Shown here one piece after another: positions 778 through 59,003 of a stretch of 64,000 nt of DNA. The notes under the pieces are model-generated. The model was not told the DNA's origin. It did not search any database and saw only the letters and a program-made list of their open reading frames with translations. The position numbers and the translations under genes are program-made. The stretch spans positions 248,001-312,000 of the forward strand of contig NZ_CP020880.1 in assembly GCF_002157855.1 (NCBI RefSeq), in the 5' to 3' direction. The stretch's first letter is position 1. Each line of letters opens with the position of its first letter. This stretch comes from Sutcliffiella horikoshii. Lineage in GTDB: Bacteria > Bacillota > Bacilli > Bacillales > Bacillaceae_I.

Positions 778-909
778 GCTGGTGATTGGAGCAAAAAGGT
801 GAAGACTCATGCGGGGGAGTAGCGACATTGTTGAGACCCCTGAAGCGTTGTAAGGAGGCTCAAGGTCGCCCCGCGGAAAGCGAAGCCTTTTGCAGAGATC
901 AACAGTGGC
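778..909 (+). repeat. Dispersed structured repeat, copy 1
   Basis: First copy of the intergenic element that recurs through the window. Its ends pair: GCTGGTGAT with ATCAACAGTGGC outside, then GCAAAAAGG with CCTTTTGC inside (one-base bulge). The core contains the shared GAGACCCC and AGGAGGCTCAAG blocks. It lies between the phosphatidyltransferase gene and its terminator. Confidence 0.8.
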
Positions 910-930
910 TTTCATGCAATTTCCCCACAA

Positions 931-980
931 AAAAAGCTGGAAAGTTTCAGTGACAACACTGATTCTTTCCAGCTTTTTTC
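931..980. terminator. Bidirectional rho-independent terminator
   Basis: AAAAAGCTGGAAAG at 931-944 pairs with CTTTCCAGCTTTTT at 965-978, and an inner TCAGTG/CACTGA stem extends the hairpin. T-runs on both strands suit termination of the upstream plus-strand transcript and of the minus-strand gene at 994-1140. Confidence 0.85.
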
Positions 981-993
981 TTTGTTTATATAC

Positions 994-1140
994 CTAAGGC
1001 CTTCTGCGGCCAGCAAATAAGTTAAAGACTAATGCGATTAGTGCTAATACAAGAATAATGTGAATTAGGTTCCCTGCGATATCAAAAGAGAATCCAAGTA
1101 ACCAAAGAATAAGTAATACTGCAAAGATTGTCCATAACAT
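994..1140 (-). CDS. lmo0937-family small membrane protein, copy 1
   Basis: A 48-aa protein beginning MLWTIFAVLLILWLLGF, with two hydrophobic segments around an amphipathic D-I-A-G-N-L-I-H turn and a basic GRRRP tail. This is the pattern of the small lmo0937-type membrane proteins of Firmicutes, often linked to general stress; their function is not known. A strong AGGAGG lies 9-10 bases before the start. The next gene on the same strand (1234-1383) is a close paralogue, so this is a tandem duplication. Confidence in the gene comes from the ribosome site and the paralogue. Confidence 0.8.
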   Translation of the reverse strand: MLWTIFAVLLILWLLGFSFDIAGNLIHIILVLALIALVFNLFAGRRRP

Positions 1141-1233
1141 AGTGATATGCCTCCTAAACATCTGACGTAGTAGCTGTAGTCTTGTTTTTCCCTTCAGCCA
1201 CTCCTATTACTCCTACTAATAATTGCCTGTTAA

Positions 1234-1383
1234 TTACCTGACGCCACGTCTTCTTCCAAATAGGTTAAATACGATAGCTAACACTGCAAGAACTAAAAGA
1301 ATGTGAATAAGTCCTCCGCCGATTTCCATTGCGAAACCAAGTAACCAAAGAACTAATAGTACTACAAAGATTGTCCATAACAT
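1234..1383 (-). CDS. lmo0937-family small membrane protein, copy 2
   Basis: A 49-aa paralogue of the downstream protein: MLWTIFVVLLVLWLLGF, then an M-E-I-G-G-G-L-I-H turn and a basic GRRRGVR tail. An AGGAGG site sits a few bases upstream. About 70 percent of positions match copy 1 by eye; most changes are conservative hydrophobic swaps. The two genes are about 90 bases apart with no terminator between them, so they probably share one transcript that ends at the 931-980 hairpin. Function unknown; a role in envelope stress is only an inference from the family and from the stress genes next door. Confidence 0.8.
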   Translation of the reverse strand: MLWTIFVVLLVLWLLGFAMEIGGGLIHILLVLAVLAIVFNLFGRRRGVR

Positions 1384-1541
1384 GTGATTTTCCTCCTAAT
1401 ATAGTTTTGGTATTTTTTTTCAACGTCTACACAGAAGGTAATTCCCTAGCGTGTAAAATGTTAAACCAATATTTTTTTTAATTGTTTCAAGGGGAGTAGA
1501 TTAGGACAAAAGTTGGAAAAAGAGTTTGTCCCAATAATTAG

Positions 1542-1567
1542 GTTTTAAATTATGTAGAAAAGGAATG
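1542..1567 (+). promoter_or_regulatory. Candidate SigB promoter for csbD-like gene
   Basis: GTTTTA, 14 bases, then GGAATG resembles the SigB pattern GTTTAA-N13-15-GGGTAT, about 60 bases before the CsbD-family gene. B. subtilis csbD is SigB-controlled. The match is imperfect. Confidence 0.3.
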
Positions 1568-1625
1568 GAGTAACTAGTGACGAGCTATCAGAAGTCACAA
1601 ATTGAAGTGGGAGGTGAAGTTGATT

Positions 1626-1814
1626 ATGAATCAGACAACCATGAAAGGTAAGTGGAACCAGATGAAAGGTGACGCCAAGAAGAAATGGGGAAATCTCACG
1701 GATGATGATCTTCAACAAATTGAGGGAGATCGTGATAAGCTGGTAGGCAAAATTCAGGAACGCCACGGGAAGTCAAAAGAAGAGGCAGAACGTGAAGTAG
1801 ACGGTTGGATGTAG
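1626..1814 (+). CDS. CsbD family general stress protein
   Basis: A 62-aa hydrophilic protein, MNQTTMKGKWNQMKGDAKKK, then W-G-N-L-T-D-D-D and a G-K-I-Q-E-R-H-G-K-S stretch. This is the CsbD-like pattern: a small four-helix stress protein of unknown biochemical role. The frame is open further upstream, but GGGAGGTG at 1608-1615 is correctly placed for ATG 1626 and family members begin here. It heads a short run of stress-type genes (KGG protein, SDR). A possible SigB promoter lies upstream, and the sigB operon is elsewhere in the window. Confidence 0.85.
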   Translation: MNQTTMKGKWNQMKGDAKKKWGNLTDDDLQQIEGDRDKLVGKIQERHGKSKEEAEREVDGWM

Positions 1815-1864
1815 GTCAGTACTTAAGCTTCTTTTTAAAAATTACTTAAAGGAGAGGATTTAAG

Positions 1865-2164
1865 ATGGCTAGCAACAATAACAATATTAATAACAGCAAC
1901 AATAACAATAGTAATAACAACAACAATAACTCTAACAGCAACAATAACTCTAATAACTCTAACAACAGCAGCTCTAATAGCTCCACCATGACGTACGAGG
2001 AGCGCGGACGCAAGGGCGGAGAGAAGACAAAGCAGGAGCATGGTCAAGAGCATTTCGAGGAAATCGGCCAAAAGGGCGGTAACAAGACGCTGAACGAGCA
2101 TGGCAAAGAGCACTTCGAAGAAATCGGACAAAAAGGTGGAGGCAATAACTCCAACTCCAATTAA
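1865..2164 (+). CDS. KGG-motif stress protein with poly-Asn N-terminus
   Basis: A 99-aa protein in two parts. Residues 4-40 are almost only Asn and Ser. Residues 41-93 carry three KGG units: RGRKGGEKTKQEHGQEHFEE, then IGQKGGNKTLNEHGKEHFEE, then IGQKGGG. KGG repeats occur in hydrophilic stress-induced proteins such as B. subtilis GsiB. The AAC/AAT-rich N-terminal part is a low-complexity run likely to vary in length between strains. GGAGAGG lies about 10 bases before the ATG. Role: probably a desiccation or general stress protectant, inferred from the family. Confidence 0.85.
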   Translation: MASNNNNINNSNNNNSNNNNNNSNSNNNSNNSNNSSSNSSTMTYEERGRKGGEKTKQEHGQEHFEEIGQKGGNKTLNEHGKEHFEEIGQKGGGNNSNSN

Positions 2165-2193
2165 CAAGTGCCACAACCATAGATAAGAATCAT

Positions 2194-2226
2194 AGGGCAG
2201 CCGGAAAAACAAAGGCTGCTCTTTAT
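2194..2226 (+). terminator. Weak terminator after KGG gene
   Basis: GGGCAGCC at 2195-2202 pairs with GGCTGCTC at 2214-2221, followed by CTTTATC. The short T-tract makes this only a moderate terminator. Confidence 0.5.
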
Positions 2227-2281
2227 CATTTGGGAAAGTAACAGCGTTGTTAACAACATACCAAAGATAGGAGTGGAGAAA

Positions 2282-3160
2282 ATGAGTGAAGAACGATTTT
2301 ATTCCGTACAAACAGATGGCCAACCGACACAAGAACAAGGCAAACAACCTGGTGACGAAAATGAAATGATACCAGAACCAATCTGCGATAACCCTGATTA
2401 TAAGGGAAGCGGCAAACTAAAAGGAAAAAATGCCATCATCACTGGCGGGGACAGCGGGATTGGTCGGGCAGTAGCAATTGCCTATGCAAAAGAAGGAGCA
2501 AATGTCAGCATTGTCTACCTTGATGAGCATGAAGATGCAAAAGAAACAAAACAAATAGTGGAACAATACGGCGCAAAATGTCTGTTGTACTCAGGTGACA
2601 TCGGCCAAAAGGATTTTTGCACAGATGTTGTTAAGCAGACAGCGGAAGAACTGGGAGGGTTACATATTCTCGTAAACAATGCCGCTGAACAGCATGTGCA
2701 AGAGAAAATCGAGGACATTTCTGAAGAACAGCTATTACGTACGTTCCAGACTAATATCTTCTCCTACTTTTATTTTATCCAGGCCGCAATGCCATATCTG
2801 GATAAAGGAAGTTCCATCATCAACACCGCTTCTGTGGTGGCCTATAAAGGAATGCCTGTATTAATGGACTATTCCGCAACCAAAGGAGCGATTGTAGCGT
2901 TGACGCGTTCCTTGTCAGAGAACATTGTGGGCAGTGGAATCAGAGTGAACGGTGTAGCACCTGGACCAATTTGGACGCCGCTTATTCCGGCATCCTTTGA
3001 TGGAGAACAGGTAGAGGAGTTCGGTACCAATTCTCCAATGGGGCGTCCGGGCCAACCTGCTGAACTAGCTCCGGCCTATGTTTACCTAGCTTCAGAGGAT
3101 TCCTCCTATGTGTCCGGACAAATGATTCACATTAACGGTGGGACGGTAGTGAACGGTTAA
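2282..3160 (+). CDS. SDR family NAD(P)-dependent oxidoreductase (general-stress type)
   Basis: A classical short-chain dehydrogenase of 292 aa with the long N-terminal tail of the B. subtilis YhdF/YhxC group. The cofactor motif TGGDSGIG is at about residues 54-61, NNAAEQ follows beta-4, and the active-site pair is YSATK with Tyr197 and Lys201. It is expected to oxidise or reduce an alcohol or carbonyl with NAD(P); the substrate is unknown. ATG 2282 is preferred over the in-frame GTG at 2273 because that GTG overlaps the AGGAG ribosome site. A strong terminator follows, so the gene ends its own transcript. Confidence 0.88.
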   Translation: MSEERFYSVQTDGQPTQEQGKQPGDENEMIPEPICDNPDYKGSGKLKGKNAIITGGDSGIGRAVAIAYAKEGANVSIVYLDEHEDAKETKQIVEQYGAKCLLYSGDIGQKDFCTDVVKQTAEELGGLHILVNNAAEQHVQEKIEDISEEQLLRTFQTNIFSYFYFIQAAMPYLDKGSSIINTASVVAYKGMPVLMDYSATKGAIVALTRSLSENIVGSGIRVNGVAPGPIWTPLIPASFDGEQVEEFGTNSPMGRPGQPAELAPAYVYLASEDSSYVSGQMIHINGGTVVNG

Positions 3161-3176
3161 GAATATTTATTTTTGG

Positions 3177-3202
3177 GGGACAGCTCATGCTGTCTCTTTT
3201 TT
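3177..3202 (+). terminator. Rho-independent terminator after SDR gene
   Basis: GACAGC at 3179-3184 pairs with GCTGTC at 3189-3194 across a TCAT loop, followed by TCTTTTTT. Confidence 0.85.
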
Positions 3203-3222
3203 ATAGGGAAAATGTAATACAA

Positions 3223-3345
3223 GTTGATTTCCGTTCCAGGCGCTTCGCTTGCCTGCGGGCGGTCTTTGAGCCTCATCACTCCGTTGCGGGGTCTCACCTG
3301 TCCCTTCCTCCCGCGGGCGTCTGCGCGCCTTCCACTACAATCAAC
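3223..3345 (-). repeat. Dispersed structured repeat, copy 2
   Basis: GTTGATT at the left pairs with AATCAAC at the right, then an 8x8 internal loop, then AGGCGC with GCGCCT. The orientation is opposite to copy 1. The core has the GTGAG/CTCAC-type inner stem, weakened here by TTTGAG opposite CTCACC. Confidence 0.85.
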
Positions 3346-3460
3346 AAGGTTATTTCATTGACTTAAGGTTTAAAACAGCTATCTTAATGAGTTTCATTTG
3401 AAAAAAGGATTTCCTCAGAATTTGTAGAAATTTAAGGAAAGGAAAGGAGTGGGGAAATCC

Positions 3461-3790
3461 ATGAGCCTGCAAACTTATATCTATTTACTAAGGTTGCCTG
3501 AAAGATTATATGATCCTGAGCAGTGGACGGAAGAGGAAAAAACAATAGTATCCCGACATTTCAGCTACTTAAAAAAGAATGTGGACAATGGAGTGGTGAT
3601 ACTTGCGGGAAGAACGGAACAGACGGATGAAACCGGGTTTGGTATCGTCATATTTTTAGCAAGAAATGAAACCGAAGCAGAAAGGTTTATGAACAACGAC
3701 CCTGCCGTATCAAGCGAAATTATGACAGCAGAATTGTCACCTTACCGCCTTGCGTTAATGAATGAAAAGTTCTCTATAGGTGTTAAATAA
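3461..3790 (+). CDS. YciI-like family protein
   Basis: A 109-aa protein beginning MSLQTYIYLLRLPERLYDPE. The pattern is a small ferredoxin-like fold of the YCII-related type: a beta strand, a helix with W-T-E-E-E, a HFSYLKK segment, a G-V-V-I-L-A-G-R strand, and an acidic E-x-E-A-E-R-F-M-x-x-D-P block. No catalytic activity is established for this branch. AAGGAG at 3444-3449 favours ATG 3461 over the GTG at 3449 inside that site. It converges with bioB; an inverted repeat lies between them. Confidence 0.7.
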   Translation: MSLQTYIYLLRLPERLYDPEQWTEEEKTIVSRHFSYLKKNVDNGVVILAGRTEQTDETGFGIVIFLARNETEAERFMNNDPAVSSEIMTAELSPYRLALMNEKFSIGVK

Positions 3791-3795
3791 AAACA

Positions 3796-3824
3796 GGACA
3801 GTGGCACGGGCTGTTCCACTGTCC
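3796..3824. terminator. Inverted repeat between convergent genes
   Basis: GGACAGTGG at 3796-3804 is matched by CCACTGTCC at 3816-3824. It lies between the YciI-like stop and the bioB stop. Neither flank has a good T-run, so efficiency is uncertain. Confidence 0.55.
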
Positions 3825-3835
3825 ATGAATGCTGC

Positions 3836-4846
3836 TTACACGCCGGCAAACTGCTGGCTTTCTGTTTCAAATGCATTTTCCTCAATCTCAAAACCAAGGT
3901 CTTTGATCATTTGGTGATCTTGGTTGGATGCTTGGCCGCTAGTGGTCAAATAGTCACCGACAAAGATAGAATTCGCCATGTAAAGCCCCATACTTTGAAG
4001 TGTACGAAGATTGTATTCGCGGCCTCCTGAGATCCTAATCTCTTTTGTAGGATTCACAAAGCGGAACATCGCAAGGATCTTCAAGCATTTTAGTGGAGTC
4101 AGATCATCCATGCCGGCAAGCTTTGTCCCCTCTATTGGATGCAGGAAATTGACTGGGATAGAGTCGGCATCTAATTCTTTTAGCGAAAATGCCATTTCTA
4201 CTATGTCTTCGAGCGTTTCACCCATCCCGCAAATCACACCAGAACAAGGCGAGATCCCTGCACTTTTTAATGTTTCAAGTGTGCGGATGCGATCCTCATA
4301 ATCATGTGTTGTGGTAATTTCACTGTGATGGCCTTTACTTGTATTGATATTATGGTTGAAACGGTCCACCCCGGCTTCCTTCAAGAGTTTTGCTTGTGCA
4401 TCATTTACCAGCCCCAGACAGGCGCAGATTTTCATAGTATCTACATCTTTCTTAATATCTTGAACGGCTTGCACCACTGTGTCCACGTCTCTATTTGTCG
4501 GCTTACGTCCACTCATGACGATGCAGTAGGTGCCGATTTTATTTTTCTTGGCTTCTTTTGCTCCGTCGACGATGATTTTTTTGCTGACTAGCGGGTAGCT
4601 GTCAATTTCGGTGTCGGCTTTCATGGATTGGGAGCAGTAGCCGCAATCTTCTGGGCATAAGCCGCTCTTTGCGTTGATGATCAGGTTCAGTTTTACTTTT
4701 TTTCCGTAATAGTGTTTGCGGATATGAAAGGCTGATTGAATGAGTTCTAATACGTTGTCGTCGTCTTCGTTTAAAATTCGCAAGGCTTCGTCCGGTGTTA
4801 TGTTATAGCCTTCTACTACTTTTTCTGCTAGCTGTTTCCAAGTCAA
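3836..4846 (-). CDS. bioB: Biotin synthase
   Basis: A radical SAM enzyme of 336 aa that inserts sulfur into dethiobiotin to make biotin. The 4Fe-4S ligands are in CPEDCGYC (Cys64, 68, 71). Other family blocks are CACLGLV, RFNHNINTS, CSGVICGMGE and the Arg-containing R-I-S-G-G-R-E near the 2Fe-2S cluster. The start is TTG at 4846-4844: AGGAGT lies 7 bases upstream and the length fits the family. The frame stays open into a repeat copy, but those residues come from the repeat and are not BioB. No other bio gene is in the window. A BirA-type operator lies at 5012-5048. Confidence 0.95.
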   Translation of the reverse strand: MTWKQLAEKVVEGYNITPDEALRILNEDDDNVLELIQSAFHIRKHYYGKKVKLNLIINAKSGLCPEDCGYCSQSMKADTEIDSYPLVSKKIIVDGAKEAKKNKIGTYCIVMSGRKPTNRDVDTVVQAVQDIKKDVDTMKICACLGLVNDAQAKLLKEAGVDRFNHNINTSKGHHSEITTTHDYEDRIRTLETLKSAGISPCSGVICGMGETLEDIVEMAFSLKELDADSIPVNFLHPIEGTKLAGMDDLTPLKCLKILAMFRFVNPTKEIRISGGREYNLRTLQSMGLYMANSIFVGDYLTTSGQASNQDHQMIKDLGFEIEENAFETESQQFAGV

Positions 4847-4879
4847 AGTAATCACTCCTATTGAGTTTTTGCAAAAACA

Positions 4880-4994
4880 GTTGATTTCCGTTCCAAGCGC
4901 TTCGCTTTCCACGGGCGGTCCGGGAGCTTTTCATCGTACGAAGAAAATGCGTTAGCCTTTTCGAGGAGTCTGCGCGCCTTCCATTACAATCAAC
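4880..4994 (-). repeat. Dispersed structured repeat, copy 3 (variant core)
   Basis: Ends GTTGATT and AATCAAC match the family, with a slightly mismatched inner stem AAGCGC/GCGCCT. The core differs: it carries a GAAAATGCGTTAGC-type module also seen in copy 6 at 15.2 kb. It lies in the bioB leader, between the operator and the gene. Confidence 0.8.
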
Positions 4995-5011
4995 AATGTT
5001 GCTGTATAATT

Positions 5012-5048
5012 TATATGTAAACTTACTAACAATAAAAGTTTACATATA
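5012..5048. promoter_or_regulatory. BirA-type biotin operator
   Basis: Arms TATATGTAAAC (5012-5022) and GTTTACATATA (5038-5048) are perfect 11-base inverted repeats with a 15-base spacer. This matches the known BirA site TGTAAAC-N15-GTTTACA. It precedes bioB, so biotin repression of bioB is expected. Confidence 0.85.
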
Positions 5049-5091
5049 AAAGTGGTAGCTGACAAGGGGAAGTAGTAAATCTGATGGAAAA

Positions 5092-5120
5092 TTGCAAATT
5101 GTTTTGTAAGCGGTTATAAT
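5092..5120 (+). promoter_or_regulatory. SigA promoter for helD
   Basis: TTGCAA (5092-5097), 17 bases, TATAAT (5115-5120). Transcription would begin near 5127, leaving a leader of about 130 bases before helD. Confidence 0.75.
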
Positions 5121-5186
5121 TATTTTTCCGGCAAAAGAGAACAGAAAACCGTTGCGTACTTTGAAAAGGTTCCTTAAGGGATAGTT

Positions 5187-5223
5187 ACCATGAATGGAGA
5201 AAAACTCTAGTTCATGGTTTTTT
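5187..5223 (+). terminator. Leader terminator (attenuator) before helD
   Basis: ACCATGAA (5187-5194) pairs with TTCATGGT (5211-5218), with an inner GGAG/CTCT pairing, and six T residues follow. It lies between the helD promoter and the coding start, so it should terminate transcription before helD unless relieved. Confidence 0.75.
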
Positions 5224-5257
5224 GCGTCTCTACAAAAACCTCGGGAGTGTGAAGAGT

Positions 5258-7573: not shown

Positions 7574-7581
7574 ACAAAATG

Positions 7582-7622
7582 AGACAGAGCCTTTTTATTT
7601 TTAATAGGGGCTCTGTTTTTTT
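7582..7622 (+). terminator. Terminator after helD
   Basis: CAGAGCC at 7585-7591 pairs with GGCTCTG at 7609-7615, with a T-rich loop, followed by T7. Confidence 0.85.
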
Positions 7623-7641
7623 AAGAAAGCAAGTAAATTCC

Positions 7642-7768
7642 GTTGATTTGCGTTCCAGGCGCTTCGCTTGCCTGCGGGCGGTCCGTGAGCCTCCTCGGCT
7701 TGCAGCCTGTGGGGTCTCACCTGTCCCTTCCTCCCGCGGGCGTCTGCGCGCCTTCCACTCCAATCAAC
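7642..7768 (-). repeat. Dispersed structured repeat, copy 4
   Basis: Ends GTTGATT/AATCAAC, inner stem AGGCGC/GCGCCT, and an innermost GTGAG/CTCAC stem. It faces copy 5 across 83 bases in inverted orientation. Confidence 0.88.
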
Positions 7769-7851
7769 TGGGTGGCTTCATTAAACTTAGGTTTAAAAAA
7801 CCTTCTAATTGAGTTATCTGAAAAGCATTAACATATATTGACGTAATTTCT

Positions 7852-7983
7852 AGCTGTGGATTGGAGCAAATGGTGGAGACTCCAGCGGGGGAGTAACGGT
7901 AGGTTGAGACCCCGCAACGAAGTGAGGAGGCTCAAGCACCGTCCCGCGGAAAGCGAAACCATTTGCGGAAAGGAACAGCGGCA
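7852..7983 (+). repeat. Dispersed structured repeat, copy 5
   Basis: Outer GCTGT/ACAGC, 8x8 loop, then GCAAATGGT/ACCATTTGC, a nine-pair stem unlike the AGGCGC stem of copy 4. Core stem TTGAG/CTCAA. Inverted relative to copy 4. Confidence 0.88.
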
Positions 7984-8033
7984 ATTAAACAATCAGGTGA
8001 AATTTCCAAATTTAATTGCATTGTCTTTTCCTG

Positions 8034-8585: not shown

Positions 8586-8637
8586 GGTAAAGTACCTCTT
8601 CTGAAGTTATTTTAAAATTATAAATTCAATTTCTTTA

Positions 8638-8655: not shown

Positions 8656-8687
8656 GTTACGTTATACGAGATAGGAGGTCAAGAACG

Positions 8688-15222: not shown

Positions 15223-15391
15223 GTTGATTGGAGTGGAAGGCGCGCAGACTCCTCGAAAATGCTAACGCATTTTCTTCGTGCGATGAACTGCTGTCGAAGC
15301 CTTCTTTGTCCTATGGGAGGAAGGGACAGGGAAGACCCCGCAGGAGCTTTCGGACCCCATGGAAAACGAAGCGCCTGGAACGGAGATCAAC
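15223..15391 (+). repeat. Dispersed structured repeat, copy 6 (long variant)
   Basis: Outer GTTGAT/ATCAAC, inner AGGCGC/GCGCCT, innermost GGAAG/CTTTC. At about 169 bases it is longer than the others: an extra module with AAAATGCTAACGCATTTT lies in the left half, related to the module in copy 3. Confidence 0.85.
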
Positions 15392-16965: not shown

Positions 16966-17040
16966 AGTGGCCCCGGCGAAGCCGAGGAGGCTCAAGCACC
17001 GTCCTCTGGATAAGCGAACACCTGGAACAGAAATCTACAG
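16966..17040 (+). repeat. Partial repeat copy 7b
   Basis: Only the right half of the family is present: GCCGAGGAGGCTCAAGCACC, then AAGCGAACACCTGGAACAGAAATCTACAG. The left half is missing, so it is a truncated copy about 30 bases after copy 7. Confidence 0.7.
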
Positions 17041-20421: not shown

Positions 20422-20698
20422 TTGTAAATAAAAGGGTTCTATACGCCCAAACGATCAAGAAATTGGAGTGAAAGGTCAAATAGAAGGTCTCTATACGCCC
20501 GAACGACCAAGAAATCGGGGTAAATGGTCAAATAGAACGGTTCTATACGCCCGAACGATCAAGAAATCGAAGTGAAAGGTCAAATAGAAGGGCTCTATAC
20601 GCCCGAACGACCAAGAAATCGGAGTGAAAGGTCAGATAGAACGCCTCTATATGCCCGAACCCTCACACAATCAACGCGAAACGTCTAATAGAACCCAT
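20422..20698 (+). repeat. Array A: 52-bp tandem repeats
   Basis: Five units of exactly 52 bp begin at 20422, 20474, 20526, 20578 and 20630 (the first and last diverged). Each has GGTCAAATAGA, five variable bases, TCTATACGCCCGAAC, GAYC, then AAGAAATCGGAGTGAAA. TAGA-N5-TCTA is a dyad; in one unit it extends to TAGAAC-G-GTTCTA. No open frame is conserved, since 52 is not a multiple of three. The 130 bases after it are C-rich and hold no gene that I can see. Confidence 0.9.
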
Positions 20699-28447: not shown

Positions 28448-28470
28448 ATTTTGTATCGACACAATACCCC

Positions 28471-28498
28471 TAGCTGTATGCGGAAATCAACAGCGGTG
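28471..28498 (+). repeat. Remnant of the dispersed repeat
   Basis: TAGCTGT joined directly to ATGCGGAAATCAACAGCGG: the left tip and right tip of the family with the core missing. It looks like an internal deletion that left only the ends. Confidence 0.6.
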
Positions 28499-33609: not shown

Positions 33610-33736
33610 GTTGATCGCAGTGGAAGGCACGAAGACTCCTGCGGGAGGAAGGGACAGGGAAGACCCCACAGGGCGAATGCCCAAGGAGGCTTCCGGACCG
33701 CCCGCGAAAAGCGAAGTGCCTGGAACGGAGATCAAC
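33610..33736 (+). repeat. Dispersed structured repeat, copy 9
   Basis: GTTGATC pairs with GATCAAC, 8x8 internal loop, then AGGCAC with GTGCCT, innermost GGAAG with CTTCC. The inner stem differs from the usual AGGCGC/GCGCCT in both strands. Confidence 0.88.
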
Positions 33737-36133: not shown

Positions 36134-36259
36134 GTTGATTTCCGTTCCAGGCGCTTCGCTTGCCTGCGGGCGGTCCGTGAGCCTCCTCGGCTTGCGCCTG
36201 TGGGGTCTCACCTGTCCCTTCCTCCCGCGGGCGTCTACGCGCCTTCCACTTCAATCAAC
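36134..36259 (-). repeat. Dispersed structured repeat, copy 10
   Basis: GTTGATT/AATCAAC ends, AGGCGC/GCGCCT inner stem, GTGAG/CTCAC innermost. Lies between the tex terminator and cmpA. Confidence 0.88.
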
Positions 36260-36474: not shown

Positions 36475-36595
36475 GTGGATTGAGCGGAAGGCACTCGACT
36501 CCGGCGGGAGGTAGCGGTAGACTTGAGACCCCACAGTGCAGCGAGGAGGCTCAAGCACCGCCCCGCGGAAAGCGAGTGCCTGCAGCGGAAAGGAG
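36475..36595 (+). repeat. Dispersed structured repeat, copy 11
   Basis: Inner stem AGGCACTCG/CGAGTGCCT is nine pairs, a different sequence from other copies. Core stems GCGGG/CCCGC, GCGGT/ACCGC and CTTGAG/CTCAAG. The outermost stem is eroded (right end GGAAAGGAGG). Confidence 0.85.
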
Positions 36596-49498: not shown

Positions 49499-49815
49499 GT
49501 CTATTGGACTGGAGGAAGGCATTGGGGGTGGCTTCGGTCGTATAGGGGGCTTCTATAAGACGGAAGGGAAGCTTTGTGAGTGGCTTCGGTCGTATAGGGG
49601 GCTTCTATAAGACGGAAGGGAAGCTTTGTGAGTGGCTTCGGTCGTATAGAGGGGTTCTATTGGACGGAAGGGAAGCTTGATGAGTGGCTTCGGTCGTATA
49701 GGGGGGGTCTATTAGACTAAAGGGAAGCTTTGTGAGTGGCTTCGGTCGTATAGACCGCTTCTATAAGATTTTTTTAGTTCTAAGCTCTTTGCTTCGGGCA
49801 AATAGAATTCTTCAA
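49499..49815 (-). repeat. Array B: 52-bp tandem repeats
   Basis: Five full units begin at 49529, 49581, 49633, 49685 and 49737, exactly 52 bp apart, with degenerate half units on both sides. Unit: TGGCTTCGGTCGTATAG, seven variable bases, CTATAAGACGGAAGGGAAG, CTTTGTGAG. Read in reverse it matches array A (ATAGAAG...CTATACG-x-CCGAA). The first two units are almost identical, suggesting a recent duplication. Confidence 0.9.
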
Positions 49816-49887
49816 AGTTACCTGACTTTTAATTGGGTGGCTGGTTTAACATTATCAACGCCCGAAACAAAAGTATTGATCTAAAAG

Positions 49888-50511
49888 GGTAACAGAGAAG
49901 CAGTCTCAGTGCCCGAAGTTGGATCGCTGAACAAAGAGTGGTAACAGAGAGGCGGTCTCAGTGCCCAAAGATGCTCCGCTGCGCCAAGAACGGTAACAGA
50001 GAAGCAGTCTCAGTGCCCGAAGTTGGATCGCTGAACAAAGAGTGGTAACAGAGAGGCGGTCTCAGTGCCCAAAGATGCTCCGCTGCTCCAAGAACGGTAA
50101 CAGAGAGGCTGTCTCAGTGCCCGAAGTTGCATCGCTGCTCCAAGGACGGTAACAGAGAAGCGGTCTCGGTGCCCAAAGATGCACTGCTGAACCAAGAACG
50201 GTAACAGAGAAGCTGTCTCAGTGCCCGAAGTTGCATCGCTGCTCCAAGAAAGGTAACAGAGAAGCGGTCTCGGTGCCCAAAGATGCACTGCTGAACCAAG
50301 AACGGTAACAGAGAGGCCGTCTCAGAGCCCGAAGCAGCTCCTCAGAACCAAGAACGGTAACAGAGAGGCTGTCTCAGTGCCCGAAGATGTGCCGCTGCTC
50401 CAAGAAAGGTAACAGAGAAGCTGTCTCAGTGCCCGAAGATTTGCCGCAGAACCCAAAAAGGTAACAGAGATGCCAGCTCCCCACAGCCCCCCTAAATAAA
50501 ATTTGTAAAAA
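49888..50511 (+). repeat. Array C: twelve 52-bp tandem repeats
   Basis: Units start with GGTAACAGAG at 49888 and every 52 bases to 50460 (the last degenerates). Plan: GGTAACAGAGA, five bases (AGCAG, GGCGG, GGCTG and others), TCTCAGTGCCCGAAG, then a variable half. Two unit types alternate over the first eight units, giving a 104-bp higher-order repeat. GAGA-N5-TCTC is a dyad. The upstream 49816-49887 stretch holds a degenerate unit (GCCCGAAAC at 49860). Confidence 0.92.
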
Positions 50512-50526
50512 TTGTTAATAACCCCA

Positions 50527-52570: not shown

Positions 52571-52580
52571 GGAATATAAC

Positions 52581-52611
52581 AAAACCGCACAGTCCACTCT
52601 GTGCGGTTTTT
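52581..52611. terminator. Bidirectional terminator
   Basis: AAAACCGCACAG (52581-52592) pairs with CTGTGCGGTTTT (52599-52610). T-runs on both strands serve the permease operon and the opposite small gene. Confidence 0.92.
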
Positions 52612-52612
52612 G

Positions 52613-52795: not shown

Positions 52796-52812
52796 CCATA
52801 TCCCCCTACTAT

Positions 52813-54753
52813 TTAAACAAGCTCTTCCCATTCTTCCATCAACGCAAGCAGCTTTTCCTGAAACGCTTCATTCGCTGTGTTCAGCTCCAGCACTTTTTCG
52901 TGATCCTGATAGACTTCAGGCAAGCAAAGCTCGCTTTCGTTATGATCGATTTTCTGCTCAAGCTCTTCCATCTCTTTTTCGATTTCTTCGACGCGGCGTT
53001 TGCGCTGACGTTCAAGGCGCTTTGCCTCTTTTTCCTGTTCGTAACTCATTTTTTCAGGGGCCTCAGTTGAAGCAGATGAAGTCACTTTAGAACCTTTAGT
53101 AGTCGCTGTCTCTGCTTCCAATCGCTCGAGTTCCAATGCCTCTTCCTTTTTCTCCACATAATAGTCGTAGTCGCCAAGGTACTCGGTTGCGCCGACCGTA
53201 CTCAGCTCATACACCTTCGTCGCCAACCGGTTGATAAAATAACGGTCATGGGACACGAAGAGAATCGTGCCGGGATAATCAATCAAGGCATTTTCTAGGA
53301 TTTCCTTGCTGTCCAAGTCCAAGTGGTTGGTAGGCTCATCGAGAATCAGCACGTTTGAGCGCTCCATCATAAGTTTGGAGAGGGCAAGTCGCGCCTTTTC
53401 GCCACCACTCAGCGTGGAAACTGGCTTCAGTACGTCATCCCCTGAAAATAGGAAGTTTCCAAGAACGGTCCGGATTTCTTTCTCCATTTTCTGAGGATAT
53501 TCATCCCAAAGCTCCGCTAGAACGGTTTTGTTGGAGGTAAGATCTGCCTGCTGCTGATCGTAATAGCTGATCGACACATTGGCGCCAAAAGAAAAGGTAC
53601 CTTCAAGCGGCTTTAATTTTCCGACGAGAGTCTTTAATAAGGTAGACTTCCCAATTCCGTTTGGCCCGACAAGTGCAACACTGTCGCCGCGGCTCATGGA
53701 AAAGTCGACATGGCGGAAGACGGGATGCGTATCATAGGAAACGGACAAATCTTTCGCTTTCAGAACGTCGTTGCCACTTTGGCGGTGGATATCGAACATG
53801 ATGGAAGCAGATTTCTCATCGCCTTTAGGACGGTCCATCACGTCCATCTTCTCAAGCTGCCTGCGACGGCTTTGCGCACGCTTGGTCGTTGAAGCGCGGG
53901 CAAGGTTCTTTGCTACAAAATCTTGCAGCTTGGCAATCTCTCCTTGCTGCTTCTCAAACATTTTCATCTCGCGCTCATATTGCTCGGCTTTTTGTTCGAG
54001 ATATTTGCTATAGTTTCCGATGAACTTTGCGGATTGCTTACGCGAAATCTCGTAAACAATGTTAACGACCTTGTCCAAGAAATAGCGGTCATGGGAAACA
54101 ATCAGCAGGGCACCAGGGTAGCCTTGAAGGTAGTTTTCCAGCCAGGAAAGCGTGTCGATGTCCAAGTGGTTGGTCGGCTCATCGAGAATGAGGAGGTCCG
54201 GTTTGGTCAAAAGCAGTTTCGCCAAAGCTAATCTTGTCCTCTGTCCGCCACTTAACGTTTCAATAGGTGTTTGGTAATCGTACTCGGAAAAATGCAGTCC
54301 GTGCAGGACGGAGCGGATATCTGCTTCATATTGAAAGCCGCCTTTTTGCTTAAAGGCTTCTTGCACTTCGTCATATTCTTTGAGAATGCGAGCGTATTGC
54401 GATTCATCTTCAAAATAAGCGGGATCTCCCATCTTCGCTTCAAGGGTGCGCATTTGCGTTTCGAGTTCGCGGAGTCCGGCGAATACGGTCAGCATCTCGT
54501 CCCAGATTGAGCGCTCAGTCTGCAAGCCGGTGTCCTGTGCGAGATAGCCGATCGACACGCCTTTAGGTTTAATCAGGTCTCCTGAATCAAAGGATAGCTG
54601 ATTGGATATGATTTTTAATAGAGTAGATTTCCCTGCCCCGTTGCGTCCTACAAGGGCAATTCTATCTTTGGATTGTACTTCTAGTTTTATATTCGATAAA
54701 ATAAGGTCAGCGCCAAAGTATTTGGTCAACTGATTAACTTGTAAAATAATCAT
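52813..54753 (-). CDS. ydiF: ABC-F family ATPase YdiF
   Basis: A 646-aa soluble ABC-F protein with two ATP-binding domains. Each has Walker A (G-R-N-G-A-G-K-S-T and G-P-N-G-I-G-K-S-T), signature L-S-G-G-Q/E and Walker B L-I-L-D-E-P-T-N-H-L-D. Between them is the linker arm of about 240-320; a charged coiled-coil tail follows from about 535. ABC-F proteins act on the ribosome. GAGGTG places the start at ATG 54753 (54756 also possible). In B. subtilis moaC and rex follow; no moaC is seen here. Confidence 0.92.
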   Translation of the reverse strand: MIILQVNQLTKYFGADLILSNIKLEVQSKDRIALVGRNGAGKSTLLKIISNQLSFDSGDLIKPKGVSIGYLAQDTGLQTERSIWDEMLTVFAGLRELETQMRTLEAKMGDPAYFEDESQYARILKEYDEVQEAFKQKGGFQYEADIRSVLHGLHFSEYDYQTPIETLSGGQRTRLALAKLLLTKPDLLILDEPTNHLDIDTLSWLENYLQGYPGALLIVSHDRYFLDKVVNIVYEISRKQSAKFIGNYSKYLEQKAEQYEREMKMFEKQQGEIAKLQDFVAKNLARASTTKRAQSRRRQLEKMDVMDRPKGDEKSASIMFDIHRQSGNDVLKAKDLSVSYDTHPVFRHVDFSMSRGDSVALVGPNGIGKSTLLKTLVGKLKPLEGTFSFGANVSISYYDQQQADLTSNKTVLAELWDEYPQKMEKEIRTVLGNFLFSGDDVLKPVSTLSGGEKARLALSKLMMERSNVLILDEPTNHLDLDSKEILENALIDYPGTILFVSHDRYFINRLATKVYELSTVGATEYLGDYDYYVEKKEEALELERLEAETATTKGSKVTSSASTEAPEKMSYEQEKEAKRLERQRKRRVEEIEKEMEELEQKIDHNESELCLPEVYQDHEKVLELNTANEAFQEKLLALMEEWEELV

Positions 54754-54850
54754 CATCTTCACCTCGAGTAATTCTAGATTAAGTGTATCTTTCTTTGGAG
54801 TTTACATCAAGATATTGGGTATTTGGTTTTGAGGGAGGGCTCGATTGGAA

Positions 54851-54980
54851 TCGCCTGTAAATCGAGATTATCGCCCGTATTTTTTAATTTTCGCCCGATT
54901 AGTGGCAATTATCGCCCGTAAATCTGTAAAATCGCCCGATTCCACTCGGAAATCGCCCGTAAATCCAGATTTTCGCCCGA
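54851..54980. repeat. Array D: phased TCGCCCG repeats before rex
   Basis: TCGCCTG at 54851, then TCGCCCG at 54871, 54891, 54912, 54932, 54952 and 54973: seven cores spaced 20, 20, 21, 20, 20, 21 bases. They alternate between TCGCCYGTAAATC and TCGCCCGATT forms. The array fills the spacer between divergent ydiF and rex. Confidence 0.85.
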
Positions 54981-55091
54981 TTCCGCGCAGGTGCCCAAAG
55001 GTAGGAAAAATAGTATAGACATAGAAATGTAATCGTTTTCGTTCCGTGGTAAAATAGAGGAGCAAACAGGTTCGACAAATGGGGGAGTACA

Positions 55092-55730
55092 ATGAATAAC
55101 GAACAAATAAAAATTCCACAGGCAACGGCAAAGCGCCTGCCGTTATATTATCGTTTCATCCAGAACTTGCATTCGTCTGGCAAGCAGCGCGTGTCATCTG
55201 CGGAGCTTAGTGAAGCGGTAAAGGTGGACAGCGCCACGATCCGCCGGGACTTCAGTTACTTTGGTGCGTTGGGGAAAAAGGGATATGGATATAATGTTCA
55301 ATATTTGTTAACTTTTTTCAGGAAAACGCTCGACCAAGACGAATTGACATATGTTACTCTAATAGGTGTAGGTAATTTAGGAACCGCCTTCCTACATTAT
55401 AATTTTATGAAAAACAATAATACGAAAATAGTGATGGCCTTTGATGTGGACGAGTCCAAGATCGGCTCGGAAATCGGAGGAGTCCCTGTTTATCATTTAG
55501 ACGATATTGAAGAGCAAATGCCAGAGAATGTTACGGTAGCCATCTTGACGGTTCCGGCTCCGGTAGCACAGCCAATAGCGGATAGACTTGTAGAAAAGGG
55601 CGTAAAGGGCATACTGAACTTTACACCAGCACGTATCAATGTTCCGGAAGAGATACGCATCCATCACATTGATTTGGCGGTGGAACTGCAGTCATTGGTA
55701 TATTTTCTCAAGCACTATCCAAGCGAGTAA
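55092..55730 (+). CDS. rex: Redox-sensing transcriptional repressor Rex
   Basis: A 212-aa repressor that senses NADH/NAD+. The N-terminal winged helix has [14 protein letters not shown]; the Rossmann part has [10 protein letters not shown] near 90, and the C-terminus swaps a helix in the dimer. GGGGGAG precedes the ATG. It is divergent from ydiF across array D and is followed by tatA, as in B. subtilis. Confidence 0.95.
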
Positions 55731-55770
55731 AAAAGTTGTAAAATAAGAATATTTCGAGGAGGTGTCAAAT

Positions 55771-55953
55771 ATGGGTTCATTAGGAATGGGAAGCCTCTTA
55801 CTTATTGTATTTGTAGCACTACTTATTTTCGGTCCAAGCAAGTTGCCTCAACTTGGTAAAGCAGCAGGGAACACGTTGCGCGAATTCAAAAACGCAACGA
55901 AAGGATTGGCCGATGACGACGACGCTAAAGAGAAAAAAGAAGAAACGAAGTAA
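55771..55953 (+). CDS. tatA: Twin-arginine translocase subunit TatA
   Basis: A 60-aa TatA/E protein: one membrane helix (L-L-L-I-V-F-V-A-L-L-I-F-G), the F-G-P-S-K-L-P-Q-L-G-K hinge and an amphipathic helix F-K-N-A-T-K-G. ATG 55771 lies after AGGAGGTG; the GTG at 55762 overlaps that site. It is 17 bases before tatC, forming a minimal TatAyCy-like pair. Confidence 0.93.
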   Translation: MGSLGMGSLLLIVFVALLIFGPSKLPQLGKAAGNTLREFKNATKGLADDDDAKEKKEETK

Positions 55954-55970
55954 TGTAAGGATGAACATAT

Positions 55971-56729
55971 ATGCTAGATAGAGAAATGTCGGTGTATGAC
56001 CATATAGGCGAGCTCCGAAAAAGAATCATCATCACAGCATCCTTCTTTTTCGTTTCGGCAATCGGCGGCTTCTTCTTGGCCGAACCGATCATTGTCTATT
56101 TACAGCAAACAGATGAAGCGAAAGAGCTGACGATGAACGCCTTTCGTATGACAGACCCCATCAAGATCTTTATGCAATTCGCCTTTTTGATTGCATTTAT
56201 CATAACGTTTCCCGTCACGCTCTATCAGCTTTGGGCTTTCATCAGCCCAGGCTTATTAGAAAAAGAACGGAGAGTAACGTTAAGCTATATACCGATTTCC
56301 ATTTTCCTGTTTTTAAGCGGACTAGCTTTCTCTTACTTCATTTTATTCCCGTTCGTCGTGGATTTCATGGGTAGACTTGCAGACCGGTTGGAAATAAACC
56401 AGGTAATCGGAATCAACGAATACTTTCAATTCTTGTTTCAACTGACCCTACCGTTTGGGTTACTGTTTCAAATGCCGGTAATTGTGATGTTCTTAACAAG
56501 ACTAGGCCTCATTACCCCAAACTTTTTGGTGGAAATTCGTAAGTTCGCTTACTTTGCCCTGCTTGTGGTTGGTGGATTGATTACACCGCCAGAACTGATC
56601 TCGCATTTGATGGTAACCGTCCCTCTTTTCATTCTATATGAAATCAGCATTGTGATTTCTCGTGTTTCTTATCGAAAAGCACAGAAAGCGGCAGCGTTGA
56701 TGGAGCAGGAAGAGAAGATGAATAATTAG
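55971..56729 (+). CDS. tatC: Twin-arginine translocase subunit TatC
   Basis: A 252-aa TatC receptor for twin-arginine signal peptides. Block H-I-G-E-L-R-K-R at residues 10-17, and six membrane segments with F-L-F-L-S-G-L-A-F-S-Y-F and P-F-G-L-L-F-Q-M-P. The AAGGAT site precedes the ATG. Partner of tatA upstream; a terminator and repeat copy 12 follow. Confidence 0.95.
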   Translation: MLDREMSVYDHIGELRKRIIITASFFFVSAIGGFFLAEPIIVYLQQTDEAKELTMNAFRMTDPIKIFMQFAFLIAFIITFPVTLYQLWAFISPGLLEKERRVTLSYIPISIFLFLSGLAFSYFILFPFVVDFMGRLADRLEINQVIGINEYFQFLFQLTLPFGLLFQMPVIVMFLTRLGLITPNFLVEIRKFAYFALLVVGGLITPPELISHLMVTVPLFILYEISIVISRVSYRKAQKAAALMEQEEKMNN

Positions 56730-56735
56730 ATGACG

Positions 56736-56776
56736 CAGGCTCGTCCCTTTTTTGAGAAGGGGGCGGGCTTGTTTTT
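56736..56776 (+). terminator. Terminator after tatC
   Basis: CAGGCTCG-TCCCTT pairs with AAGGGGGCGGGCTTG through wobbles and one bulge, then GTTTTTGG. Confidence 0.75.
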
Positions 56777-56795
56777 GGTTTGGTGTTAAAACGCT

Positions 56796-56918
56796 GCTGG
56801 TCTCCGTTCCAGGCGCTTCGCTTGCCTGCGGGCGGTCCGTGAGCCTCCTCACTCCGTTGCGGGGTCTCACCTGTCCCTTCCTCCCGCGGGCGTCTGCGCG
56901 CCTTCCACTCCGACCAAC
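56796..56918 (-). repeat. Dispersed structured repeat, copy 12
   Basis: Ends GCTGGTC and GACCAAC instead of GTTGATT/AATCAAC. Two base pairs changed on both sides (A-T to G-C, T-A to C-G) while one pair became C-A. Inner stem AGGCGC/GCGCCT, innermost GTGAG/CTCAC. Confidence 0.88.
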
Positions 56919-57011
56919 AAGATGACTTCATTTTCTAGGGGGAAAGGTATTTAAAACCATTCCAAGAAAGACCAACCTCCTAATTACCCAAAAGCCCTTC
57001 TAGAAAAATTT

Positions 57012-57044
57012 AAAAAAGACCCGCACCATAAACAGGTACGAGCC
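57012..57044 (-). terminator. Terminator of ydiK
   Basis: On the minus strand GGCTCGTACC pairs with GGTGCGGGTC with wobbles, then T6. Confidence 0.8.
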
Positions 57045-57049
57045 TTCTC

Positions 57050-57256
57050 TCACTTTTTCTTCTGTTGTATCTCTTTAATCTTTTGATGCAGCAAGTAAGA
57101 CCGAATGGCGACGCCGAAATCAAAAGTGGCAATGAGCATCAGCAAAATGGTGTGCCAGTGCCAGATGGTATCCTTCACAGAAACAATCGCCAGGTACAAG
57201 AACAAGCTGCCCATGATCGCATAGAAGAAAACCATTCGTAATGGTGTTATTTTCAT
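57050..57256 (-). CDS. ydiK: DUF4305 membrane protein YdiK
   Basis: A 68-aa membrane protein: MKITPLRMVFFYAIMGSLFL, a V-K-D-T-I-W-H-W-H-T link and a second segment followed by a basic charged helix K-I-K-E-I-Q-Q-K-K-K. It corresponds in place and size to B. subtilis YdiK. GGAGG is 8 bases before ATG 57256. It is 43 bases after ydiL on the same strand, with a small hairpin (CAGCTCT/AGAGCTG) between. Function unknown. Confidence 0.82.
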   Translation of the reverse strand: MKITPLRMVFFYAIMGSLFLYLAIVSVKDTIWHWHTILLMLIATFDFGVAIRSYLLHQKIKEIQQKKK

Positions 57257-57298
57257 GTGCAAATCCTCCAGGTAAGTTCAGCTCTAACGGAGAGCTGT

Positions 57299-58045
57299 TT
57301 AAAAGAACGAAATGAAATTCGGTACGTTCTGTTGCATTTCTTCCATTTGACGCATCATTTCTTCGATATCATCGCGGAACACATATTGTACGATGACAAC
57401 AAACGAGTTCATGGCAACGTGGGCGATGATCGGAACGATAATGCGGTTAGTTTTTACATATAGGAAAGCGAAAATGCCTCCCATGACAAAGTATATGAGC
57501 AGATGCTTGAAATCTTGATGGACCACGGCAAAAAGTAACGAACTCACTGTCAGCGCAATGGCGAAGTTAAACTTCTTATAGATGGAACCGAAAATGATCT
57601 TCCGGAAAATAATCTCCTCTAATATCGGTCCAGCGACAGCGACGGCAAAGATCATGACTGGGAATGCGGAGACAAACCCCATGATTTGCTGGGTGTTCTC
57701 AGATCCGGGCTGAATGCCGAAAAGCTGCATTTGAATCTGTGCTGCCACAGCCTGCCCAATCAGTGCAAGCGGAAAGCCGACAACCGACCATAGTACTGTT
57801 TTTGGGATGGAAGCCGTTTGGCCTCGGAAGTCCCCTTTGGTCCATTCGTTGCGAAGTATCCAAGCAACAATGGCCAATCCAATCGTAAAACTGATGAATG
57901 CCCAGACGCCGATGAGATATGGCTCTCTGGTGGCACGCTCCATGCCTTCCCCGACGCCAAGCCAGATTAACAGCGGGTATCCAAGCAATCCGGACAGTTG
58001 CATCAGGACATATGTAATAATGACTAACCAATAGTTTTTTGTCAT
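57299..58045 (-). CDS. ydiL: CPBP family intramembrane metalloprotease YdiL
   Basis: A 248-aa membrane protein of the CAAX-protease/bacteriocin-processing (CPBP) family. Motif 1 is P-I-L-E-E-I-I-F-R-K near 145 with the Glu pair; motif 2 is F-A-V-V-H-Q-D-F-K-H and motif 3 I-I-A-H-V-A-M-N. About seven membrane segments. AGGAG lies 8-10 bases before the ATG. Neighbour of groES as in B. subtilis. The substrate is unknown. Confidence 0.9.
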   Translation of the reverse strand: MTKNYWLVIITYVLMQLSGLLGYPLLIWLGVGEGMERATREPYLIGVWAFISFTIGLAIVAWILRNEWTKGDFRGQTASIPKTVLWSVVGFPLALIGQAVAAQIQMQLFGIQPGSENTQQIMGFVSAFPVMIFAVAVAGPILEEIIFRKIIFGSIYKKFNFAIALTVSSLLFAVVHQDFKHLLIYFVMGGIFAFLYVKTNRIIVPIIAHVAMNSFVVIVQYVFRDDIEEMMRQMEEMQQNVPNFISFF

Positions 58046-58187
58046 AATAAGCTCCTCTTTTTCAAGGCTATTTTCGTAATAGTTGTTGTTTTATCGTATG
58101 GATAAAGTGCTCGTTATACTAAATACTGTCGTGCTCTTTTCTTCTCAAATCAGAAAAGATTACACAGAAAAATAGAATAGATAAGCG

Positions 58188-58215
58188 GTAAAAAGTCCAA
58201 TTGCCGACTTTTTAC
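58188..58215. other. Perfect inverted repeat in the ydiL-groES spacer
   Basis: GTAAAAAGTC (58188-58197) and GACTTTTTAC (58206-58215) are perfect arms around CAATTGCC. It is in the 490-base gene-free spacer. No clear promoter or T-run beyond the stem; role unknown. Confidence 0.5.
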
Positions 58216-58424
58216 TAGAGTATATCAACTACCTTTGTGAAAAGAGCCTTATGCATTATTCACTTTTCGTATTGTACCATATAATCTATATGTCCTTGTA
58301 ACGATAAGGTTTCCCTGAATGGGCCGATTTTACGAAAACAATCTCAATTCGACACGTTTAAACAGGAAAGCACATGAGGATAATGAAAAGGGTTGCAAGT
58401 CGAAAATTTTTTAGATAAAGATAC

Positions 58425-58453
58425 TTGCAAAACAGAAGCAGATTCATTATTAT
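58425..58453 (+). promoter_or_regulatory. SigA promoter of groESL
   Basis: TTGCAA (58425-58430), 17 bases, TATTAT (58448-58453). Directly before the CIRCE element. Confidence 0.78.
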
Positions 58454-58463
58454 AATAATTGTG

Positions 58464-58490
58464 TTAGCACTCAAGTGTTAAGAGTGCTAA
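58464..58490. promoter_or_regulatory. CIRCE element (HrcA operator)
   Basis: TTAGCACTC-N9-GAGTGCTAA is a perfect CIRCE inverted repeat, 44 bases before groES. HrcA repression with heat induction is expected. Confidence 0.98.
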
Positions 58491-58533
58491 TAAAAAATAA
58501 ACCATTACATATGAAACCAAGGAGGTTGTTTTC

Positions 58534-58821
58534 ATGTTAAAGCCATTAGGCGATCGCATTGTAATTGAACTTGTTCAATCAGAGGAAAAAACGGCAAGTG
58601 GTATCGTATTACCGGACTCTGCGAAAGAAAAACCTCAAGAAGGTAAAGTAGTAGCAGTAGGAACTGGCCGCGTACTAGAAAGCGGAGAGCGTGTAGCACC
58701 TGAAGTAGCAGAAGGCGACAGCGTCATCTTCTCTAAATACGCAGGAACTGAAGTGAAATTCGAAGGAAGAGAACTTCTAATCCTTAAAGAAACAGACGTA
58801 CTTGCAGTAGTAAGCAAATAA
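58534..58821 (+). CDS. groES: Co-chaperonin GroES
   Basis: A 95-aa lid of the GroEL chamber. [20 protein letters not shown] with the mobile loop T-A-S-G-I-V-L-P near 22-29, and the final L-A-V-V. AAGGAGG precedes the ATG. Controlled by CIRCE. The normally short gap to groEL is 230 bases here, because repeat copy 13 lies in it. Confidence 0.97.
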
Positions 58822-58880
58822 TTTGATCAATAAGCGGAGGCTAACCGAACCAGCCCCGCATCTTATAAAATTTTAAACGT

Positions 58881-59003
58881 GTTGATTGTAGCGGAAGGTG
58901 TGAGACTCCGGCGGGAGATAGCGGTAGCTTGAGACCCCACAGCGCAGCGAGGAGGCTCAAGCACACGCCCCGCGGAAAGCGAACACCTGCAGCGAAAATC
59001 AAC
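58881..59003 (+). repeat. Dispersed structured repeat, copy 13 (inside groESL)
   Basis: GTTGATT pairs with AATCAAC, 8x8 loop, then AGGTGT with ACACCT, core GCGGG/CCCGC and TTGAG/CTCAA. It is within the groES-groEL transcript in the sense orientation of the main form. Confidence 0.9.

What the first reader, a model, noticed from the sequence alone, without database searches (positions are those of the whole stretch)
778..59003. A dispersed intergenic element with covarying stems (at least 13 copies)
Seen: copies at 778, 3223, 4880, 7642, 7852, 15223, 16800, 33610, 36134, 36475, 56796 and 58881, plus a half copy at 16966 and a remnant at 28471. Most are 115-135 bp, in both orientations, never inside a gene. 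They share one fold: terminal stem (GTTGATT/AATCAAC), an 8x8 internal loop, a second stem, then GCGGG/CCCGC and an innermost stem. The second stem is AGGCGC/GCGCCT, AGGCAC/GTGCCT, AGGCACTCG/CGAGTGCCT, AGGTGT/ACACCT or GCAAATGGT/ACCATTTGC; the innermost is GTGAG/CTCAC, TTGAG/CTCAA or GGAAG/CTTCC. Pairing is kept while sequence changes. Inference: structure is selected, as in a structured RNA or a hairpin-transposed REP/MITE-like element. I do not recognise a described family.
Basis: partly seen in the sequence, partly recalled or inferred. Interest (0 to 1): 0.85.

Follow-up and report, generated by a model that had tools for sequence, protein, structure and literature searches.

The report
Hairpin repeat of small Bacillales transposons

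Summary
The repeat is real: 11 full copies, one enlarged copy, a nested half copy and a deletion scar. The shared fold shows strong covariation: 94.1% of cells paired in 47 own-genome rows and 95.1% in 99 cross-genus rows, against 38-51% when partners are slid. The genome has an estimated 477 copies (96 in an 864-kb sample). The covariance model hits 232 of 299 genomes of the order (E<=1e-3), but 3 of 299 drawn across the phylum (E<=1e-6). No Rfam family matches.

In other species, copies sit in ~185-bp MITEs with ends GGCTCTGTTAAA and 8-bp duplications; the same ends bound IS1595-family insertion sequences. A second end family also holds the hairpin. In this genome all five copies of an IS1182-family element lie in hairpins of this family and carry one themselves.

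None of 88 own-genome copies keeps recognisable MITE ends, so the window copies' origin is inferred by homology. Copies avoid divergent gene pairs. Host function is unresolved. Verdict: an apparently undescribed, order-wide variant of a known kind, the structured MITE/REP-like repeat.

The parts
781..903 (+). full copy, type II-like stem (GCAAAAAGG)
   Evidence: z -2.51
3222..3346 (-). full copy, type I; absent at the same site in G004, G007, G009, G012
4880..4995 (-). full-length copy with altered apical part; folds poorly (z +0.39); site empty in G003
7642..7768 (-). full copy, type I; left half of a divergent composite
7769..7854 (.). composite spacer, related to spacers of 11 other own-genome composites
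7855..7976 (+). full copy, type II; right half of the composite
15223..15391 (+). enlarged type I copy (169 bp) with an extra segment, matched in two pieces
28466..28497 (+). scar of a copy that lost its centre; full orthologs in G001 and G002
33610..33736 (+). full copy, type I; site empty in G002
36134..36259 (-). full copy, type I; core identical in G001, absent in G008
36476..36592 (+). full copy, AGGCACTCG/CGAGTGCCT stem; absent in G004 and G012
56796..56919 (-). full copy, type I, terminal stem changed to GTTGGTC/GACCAGC
58880..59003 (+). full copy, AGGTGT/ACACCT stem; absent in G001

Best explanation
The hairpin is the internal module of small non-autonomous transposons (MITEs) of Bacillales moved by IS1595-family DDE transposases, which act on an end of the form GGCTCTGTTAAA-N6-TGTTGATT; the inner box resembles the hairpin's own terminal stem. 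Insertion into A/T-rich sites, often behind genes, makes an 8-bp duplication. In this genome the outer ends are no longer recognisable and no close IS1595 transposase was found, leaving hundreds of bare hairpins whose centre stays more alike than adjoining spacer, by selection or by exchange between copies, and which can be lost by deletion of the palindrome. An IS1182-family element uses the hairpin loops as landing sites and has acquired a hairpin, so it spreads further copies. Shown: fold and covariation; ends plus duplications in other species; an IS1595 transposase between the same ends; IS1182 insertion in the loops. Inferred: that the window's end-less copies descend from such MITEs, that the IS1595 enzyme moves them, and why the centre is conserved.
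For: Covariation. Of 40 GGCTCTGTTAAA end pairs with a hairpin match, 20 have 8/8 and 29 at least 7/8 duplications; mispaired control 1.6%. Motif-free scan: 23 of 289 copies with TIR plus duplication, 0 of 865 mispaired controls. Autonomous element L299 1474-3109 with the same ends, TTTAAATA on both sides and an IS1595 transposase at 212.2 bits, cut-off 75; 12 of 30 related transposase loci, L299's own element included, show such ends with an 8/8 duplication. IS1182: transposase 358.9 bits, cut-off 270; 5 of 5 own copies in hairpins of this family with 8-9-bp duplications, each carrying a type II hairpin. Sister species lack six of the window's copies at the same site. Scar at 28471.
Against: 0 of 88 own-genome copies have recognisable TIR plus duplication, nor do 266 of all 289 copies scanned; a 2-D scan of 79 own copies found no common boundary. 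No IS1595 relative at E<=1e-30 in the own genome and in only 1 of the 11 genus members sampled. Pairs of own copies with cores 95-98% identical have diverged flanks with no shared ends, which a recent MITE burst would not give. Absence in a sister species may be loss rather than no insertion.
Confidence: 0.62

Rival explanations
1. The core is a functional structured element, probably a 3'-end RNA that acts behind genes; transposons only helped to spread it.
For: Covariation across genera; cores 0.904 and 0.873 identical against 0.662 for spacers in 12 own composites; G-U over A-C excess on one strand; 63 of 65 occupied gaps lie behind at least one gene; weak same-strand excess in tandem gaps, 42 vs 24, p 0.036 on non-independent copies.
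Against: Both orientations occur; copies are gained and lost between sister species and decay to scars; the central fold is lost in 4880. No transcript data. Target preference could explain the position.
Confidence: 0.2
2. Cores are kept alike by ectopic gene conversion, perhaps after breakage of the palindromes, with no function.
For: At one site flanks are 0.89 and 0.88 identical but cores 0.69 and 0.79 (window 780 vs G001 and G007); elsewhere cores are 0.98-1.00 with flanks 0.80-0.92; for window 7642 and 7855 the best paralog (0.97) exceeds every ortholog (0.84-0.93). The window composite's spacer is closer to two own paralogs (0.82-0.83) than to its orthologs (0.68-0.71).
Against: Own-by-own core identity (0.904, 0.873) is hardly above own-by-relative (0.893, 0.845). 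For 33609, 36474 and 4880 the ortholog is closer, and for 36134 two of three orthologs are. Repeated insertion at one site is an alternative.
Confidence: 0.25
3. The bare hairpins move by themselves through an unknown enzyme that recognises the hairpin.
For: Most copies scanned (266 of 289) lack TIR plus duplication; cores 95-98% identical with abruptly different flanks; genera differ in arm sequences.
Against: No common boundary; no linked gene found; the single Y1 transposase gene is not flanked by the hairpin. Conversion or selection explains alike cores equally well.
Confidence: 0.1

Closest known systems
IS1595-family insertion sequences and their MITEs
   Same: Same ends and 8-bp duplication as IS1595 transposase-bearing elements in the order
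   Different: The interior is a long covarying hairpin unrelated to the transposase gene; bare copies without ends dominate in this genome. A paper on IS1595 MITEs of this kind was not found
IS1182-family elements that target hairpins (IS1272/TnSha1 in PMC4923244, ISCbo5 in PMC3098183; passages read)
   Same: Insertion into hairpins, often at gene ends
   Different: Here the target is one dispersed repeat family, an 8-9-bp duplication of loop sequence is made (TnSha1 deletes part of the stem), and the IS carries a copy of the same hairpin
REP/BIME repeats with IS1397 (recalled) and other IS targeting REPs (PMC1525189, abstract and outline read)
   Same: Intergenic palindromes in hundreds of copies, paired composites, targets for IS elements
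   Different: Three times longer or more, no linked Y1/RAYT gene found, and ends of a DDE transposon in other species
Other small repeats: Bhal-1 and bcr1 (tables in PMC2267715, passages); pneumococcal RUP/BOX (PMC3049150, search listing only); NEMIS/Correia (recalled)
   Same: Small, intergenic, structured, multi-copy
   Different: Different sizes where known (Bhal-1 74 bp, Bcr1 167 bp model); their letters were not available, so Bhal-1 being a fragment of this family is not excluded

Membership tests
IS1595-type MITE (family as a whole) | Terminal inverted repeats shared with an autonomous IS1595 element | tested here: met
   GGCTCTGTTAAA ends on hairpin elements and on L299 with an IS1595 transposase, 12 of 30 related loci
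IS1595-type MITE (family as a whole) | 8-bp target duplication | tested here: met
   29 of 40 at least 7/8; control 1.6%
IS1595-type MITE (this genome's copies) | TIR plus duplication on the copies themselves | tested here: not met
   0 of 88 own copies; end pattern 0 hits in G000
IS1595-type MITE | Movement by the transposase | not testable with these tools
   needs a transposition assay
REP/RAYT system | Y1 (RAYT) transposase gene flanked by the repeat | tested here: not met
   one Y1 gene; no hairpin within 6 kb on one side and 10.6 kb on the other
REP/RAYT system | Palindrome of 20-40 bp with a GTAG or CGTC tag | tested here: not met
   core is about 124 bp; size and tag from the abstract in a search listing; the tag itself was not searched for
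Rfam RNA family | Match at or above a gathering score | tested here: not met
   whole window at gathering; 7600-8010 permissive, best E 0.22 below gathering
Functional structured RNA | Covariation | tested here: met
   alignments were fitted to the structure
Functional structured RNA | Transcribed and acting as RNA | not testable with these tools
   no expression data; G-U over A-C is suggestive only
IS1182 family (the nested IS) | Transposase match over cut-off | tested here: met
   NF033551, 358.9 bits, cut-off 270

The most novel reading that the evidence does not exclude
The hairpin core is a selected structural module of Bacillales that several transposon end types (IS1595 type, GGCTGTTTTCG type, IS1182 type) have captured independently. 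It is passenger and landing pad at once: transposons carry it, plant it behind genes, and then use the planted loops as safe targets, a self-reinforcing supply of targets.
Probability: 0.22. Interest if true: 0.85.

Novelty: new variant of a known kind. Interest (0 to 1): 0.6.

Why it matters
A repeat found in 232 of 299 sampled genomes of an order, estimated at several hundred copies in this one, has no Rfam entry and turned up in none of the open papers searched. It makes testable why a MITE interior keeps a covarying hairpin: recognition by the transposase, tolerance behind genes, or an RNA role. It also offers a clear case of an insertion sequence that carries a copy of the structure it targets.

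Tried and rejected
ISL3 transposases as owners of the GGCTCTGTTAAA ends: 30 loci fetched, none with paired ends.

Y1/RAYT mobilisation. A common boundary of own-genome copies from a 2-D duplication scan of 79 copies: none. Phages: no match; plasmids: 7 records. Rfam, permissive search of 7600-8010: two chance-level matches. Text searches for the letters or for a described Bacillaceae repeat and for IS1595 MITEs: nothing on point; only open PubMed Central papers are covered. An attC-like reading of the terminal stem was considered and dropped without a test.

Rows dropped: partial copies and copies near a locus end were left out of the boundary and identity scans. The 78/84 alignment used 88 of the 120 loci. 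One search compared composites without turning them alike; one search replaces it. In one search one locus (L295) is counted with two left ends, and some of the 40 hairpin matches are weak (scores from 17). Two MAGs outside Bacillota appear and were not followed.
Full report
OBSERVATION. An iterated profile search of the window recovers the 12 listed copies and the half copy. Eleven aligned copies are 116-127 bp; the 15223 copy spans 169 bp. Nine of eleven fold clearly better than dinucleotide shuffles (z<=-2.5); 4880 and 16802 do not. The remnant at 28471 is invisible to the models, but full copies at the same site in G001 and G002 show it to be a deletion scar.

STRUCTURE. The covariance model R1, built from 42 own-genome sequences, aligned 48 matches, 47 distinct, from 464 kb: 94.1% of cells paired, 15 of 29 pairs changed on both sides, 108 double-change cells against 4-16 when partners are slid. 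On 88 of 120 loci from named genomes, 99 distinct rows gave 95.1% paired, 23 of 29 pairs double-changed, 320 cells against 33-73. Both alignments were fitted to the model, which leans towards the structure, and related rows are not independent. The 8x8 loop contains a covarying 2-bp helix. G-U cells exceed A-C cells (32 vs 11; 58 vs 27), hinting that one strand is the one that folds.

ABUNDANCE AND SPREAD. In 864 kb of this genome (40 stretches plus the window) there are 96 copies, 80 full: about 477 genome-wide if the sample is fair. R1 hits 232 of 299 genomes of the order at E<=1e-3, 93 of 116 genera. Drawn across the phylum, it hits 3 of 299 at E<=1e-6: the own genome, one of the same order and one of the same class. 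The genus is probably Sutcliffiella: contig C1 of same-genus genome G002 has the length of a Bacillus horikoshii scaffold, 4,249,101.

WHAT MOVES IT. In related species the hairpin lies at about positions 43-166 of a ~185-bp element with ends GGCTCTGTTAAA...TTTAACAGAGCC. Of 40 such end pairs with a hairpin match in the loci held, 20 have a perfect 8-bp duplication and 29 at least 7 of 8, against 1.6% for mispaired flanks. A scan without preset motifs found ends plus duplication in 23 of 289 copies and in 0 of 865 mispaired controls: 16 of the GGCTCTGTTAAA kind (one in shifted register), 4 of the IS1182 kind, one GGCTSTTTTCG, one GTGAGGCGTTTC and one unassigned. An element with the first kind of ends and TTTAAATA on both sides (L299 1474-3109) encodes an IS1595-family transposase. 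12 of 30 related transposase loci, that one included, show such ends with a perfect duplication. A second end family, GGCTGTTTTCGCATACWTTGTTG, occurs in 81 of 150 genomes at up to 3 mismatches. In 3 of 30 fetched loci the hairpin lies between such paired ends, two with a perfect and one without a duplication; other pairs hold unrelated interiors. Its transposase was not identified.

IN THIS GENOME. No own copy among 88 shows ends plus duplication, the long end pattern has no hit, and no IS1595 relative was found at E<=1e-30; of 11 genus members sampled only G014 has one. Six of the window's copies are missing at the same site in at least one sister genome, by gain or by loss. One hairpin-bearing element is clearly mobile here: an IS1182-family IS with five copies identical in protein. 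All five lie in a hairpin of this family, flanked by an 8-9-bp duplication of loop sequence; in one (L059) the left half of the hairpin is partly deleted. An intact G013 copy and a degenerate G015 copy also lie in such a hairpin. In G006 and G010, four related copies sit in other palindromes, as read by eye from the flanks. The IS carries a type II hairpin between its upstream end and the transposase gene; G006 and G010 relatives lack it. Derivatives of about 213 bp with the same ends and a hairpin also have loop-like flanks. Hairpin targeting by IS1182-family elements is published (PMC4923244 and PMC3098183, passages read).

WHY THE CENTRE STAYS ALIKE. Twelve own composites (type I, spacer, type II) have cores 0.904 and 0.873 identical on average but spacers 0.662 (shuffled baseline 0.509); both cores exceed the spacer by 0.15 in 53 of 66 pairs. 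Own-by-relative values are close (0.893, 0.845, 0.675), which favours selection or old exchange over recent homogenisation. Against selection alone, some sites with flanks near 0.89 have cores of 0.69-0.80, and for window 7642 and 7855 a paralog is closer than any ortholog; for 33609, 36474 and 4880 the ortholog is closer. One genome per species cannot separate selection from conversion.

POSITION. Of 65 distinct occupied gaps, 49 are tandem, 14 convergent and 2 divergent, against 323, 105 and 106 of 534 gaps (p 4e-5 for the divergent class). Many duplications are A/T-rich, and the 28471 site follows a terminator T-tract, so target preference may suffice.

VERDICT. A real, order-wide, covarying hairpin repeat. 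For the family, the interior of IS1595-type MITEs in other species; in this genome, landing site and passenger of an IS1182-type element. For the window's copies the MITE origin rests on homology. A host RNA role is possible and untested.

Noticed in passing
window 28466-28497: Internal-deletion scar of a hairpin copy; full copies at the same site in G001 (L040 10173-10295) and G002 (L054 11906); no trace in G008 and G012.
   Followed up: yes
L361, L365, L369, L384, L387, L388 and other loci: A second, very abundant MITE end family, GGCTGTTTTCGCATACWTTGTTG (81 of 150 genomes, 509 sites in G046), mostly with unrelated interiors; its transposase was not identified.
   Followed up: partly
L379 1501-2605: Such ends enclose a 194-aa ORF that looks like a nucleotidyltransferase by eye, with a 7/8 duplication: a possible passenger gene.
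   Followed up: no
window 4880-4995 and 15223-15391: Both copies share another apical module (CTCGAAAA.GCTAACGCATTTTCTTCGT.CGATGAA), also seen next to a type II element in L046 and in L050.
   Followed up: no
L028 5827-6519 (G000:C1, near 4006055): The genome's single Y1 transposase gene (233-aa open frame) beside an AGGGGTCTGACCCCT palindrome unrelated to this repeat.
   Followed up: no
window 20426-20685 and 49500-50525: Two stretches of 52-bp-period repeats.
   Followed up: no
L126 and L179: Core pattern found in two MAGs outside Bacillota (Gemmatimonadales, Spirochaetaceae); misbinning is likely but was not checked.
   Followed up: no
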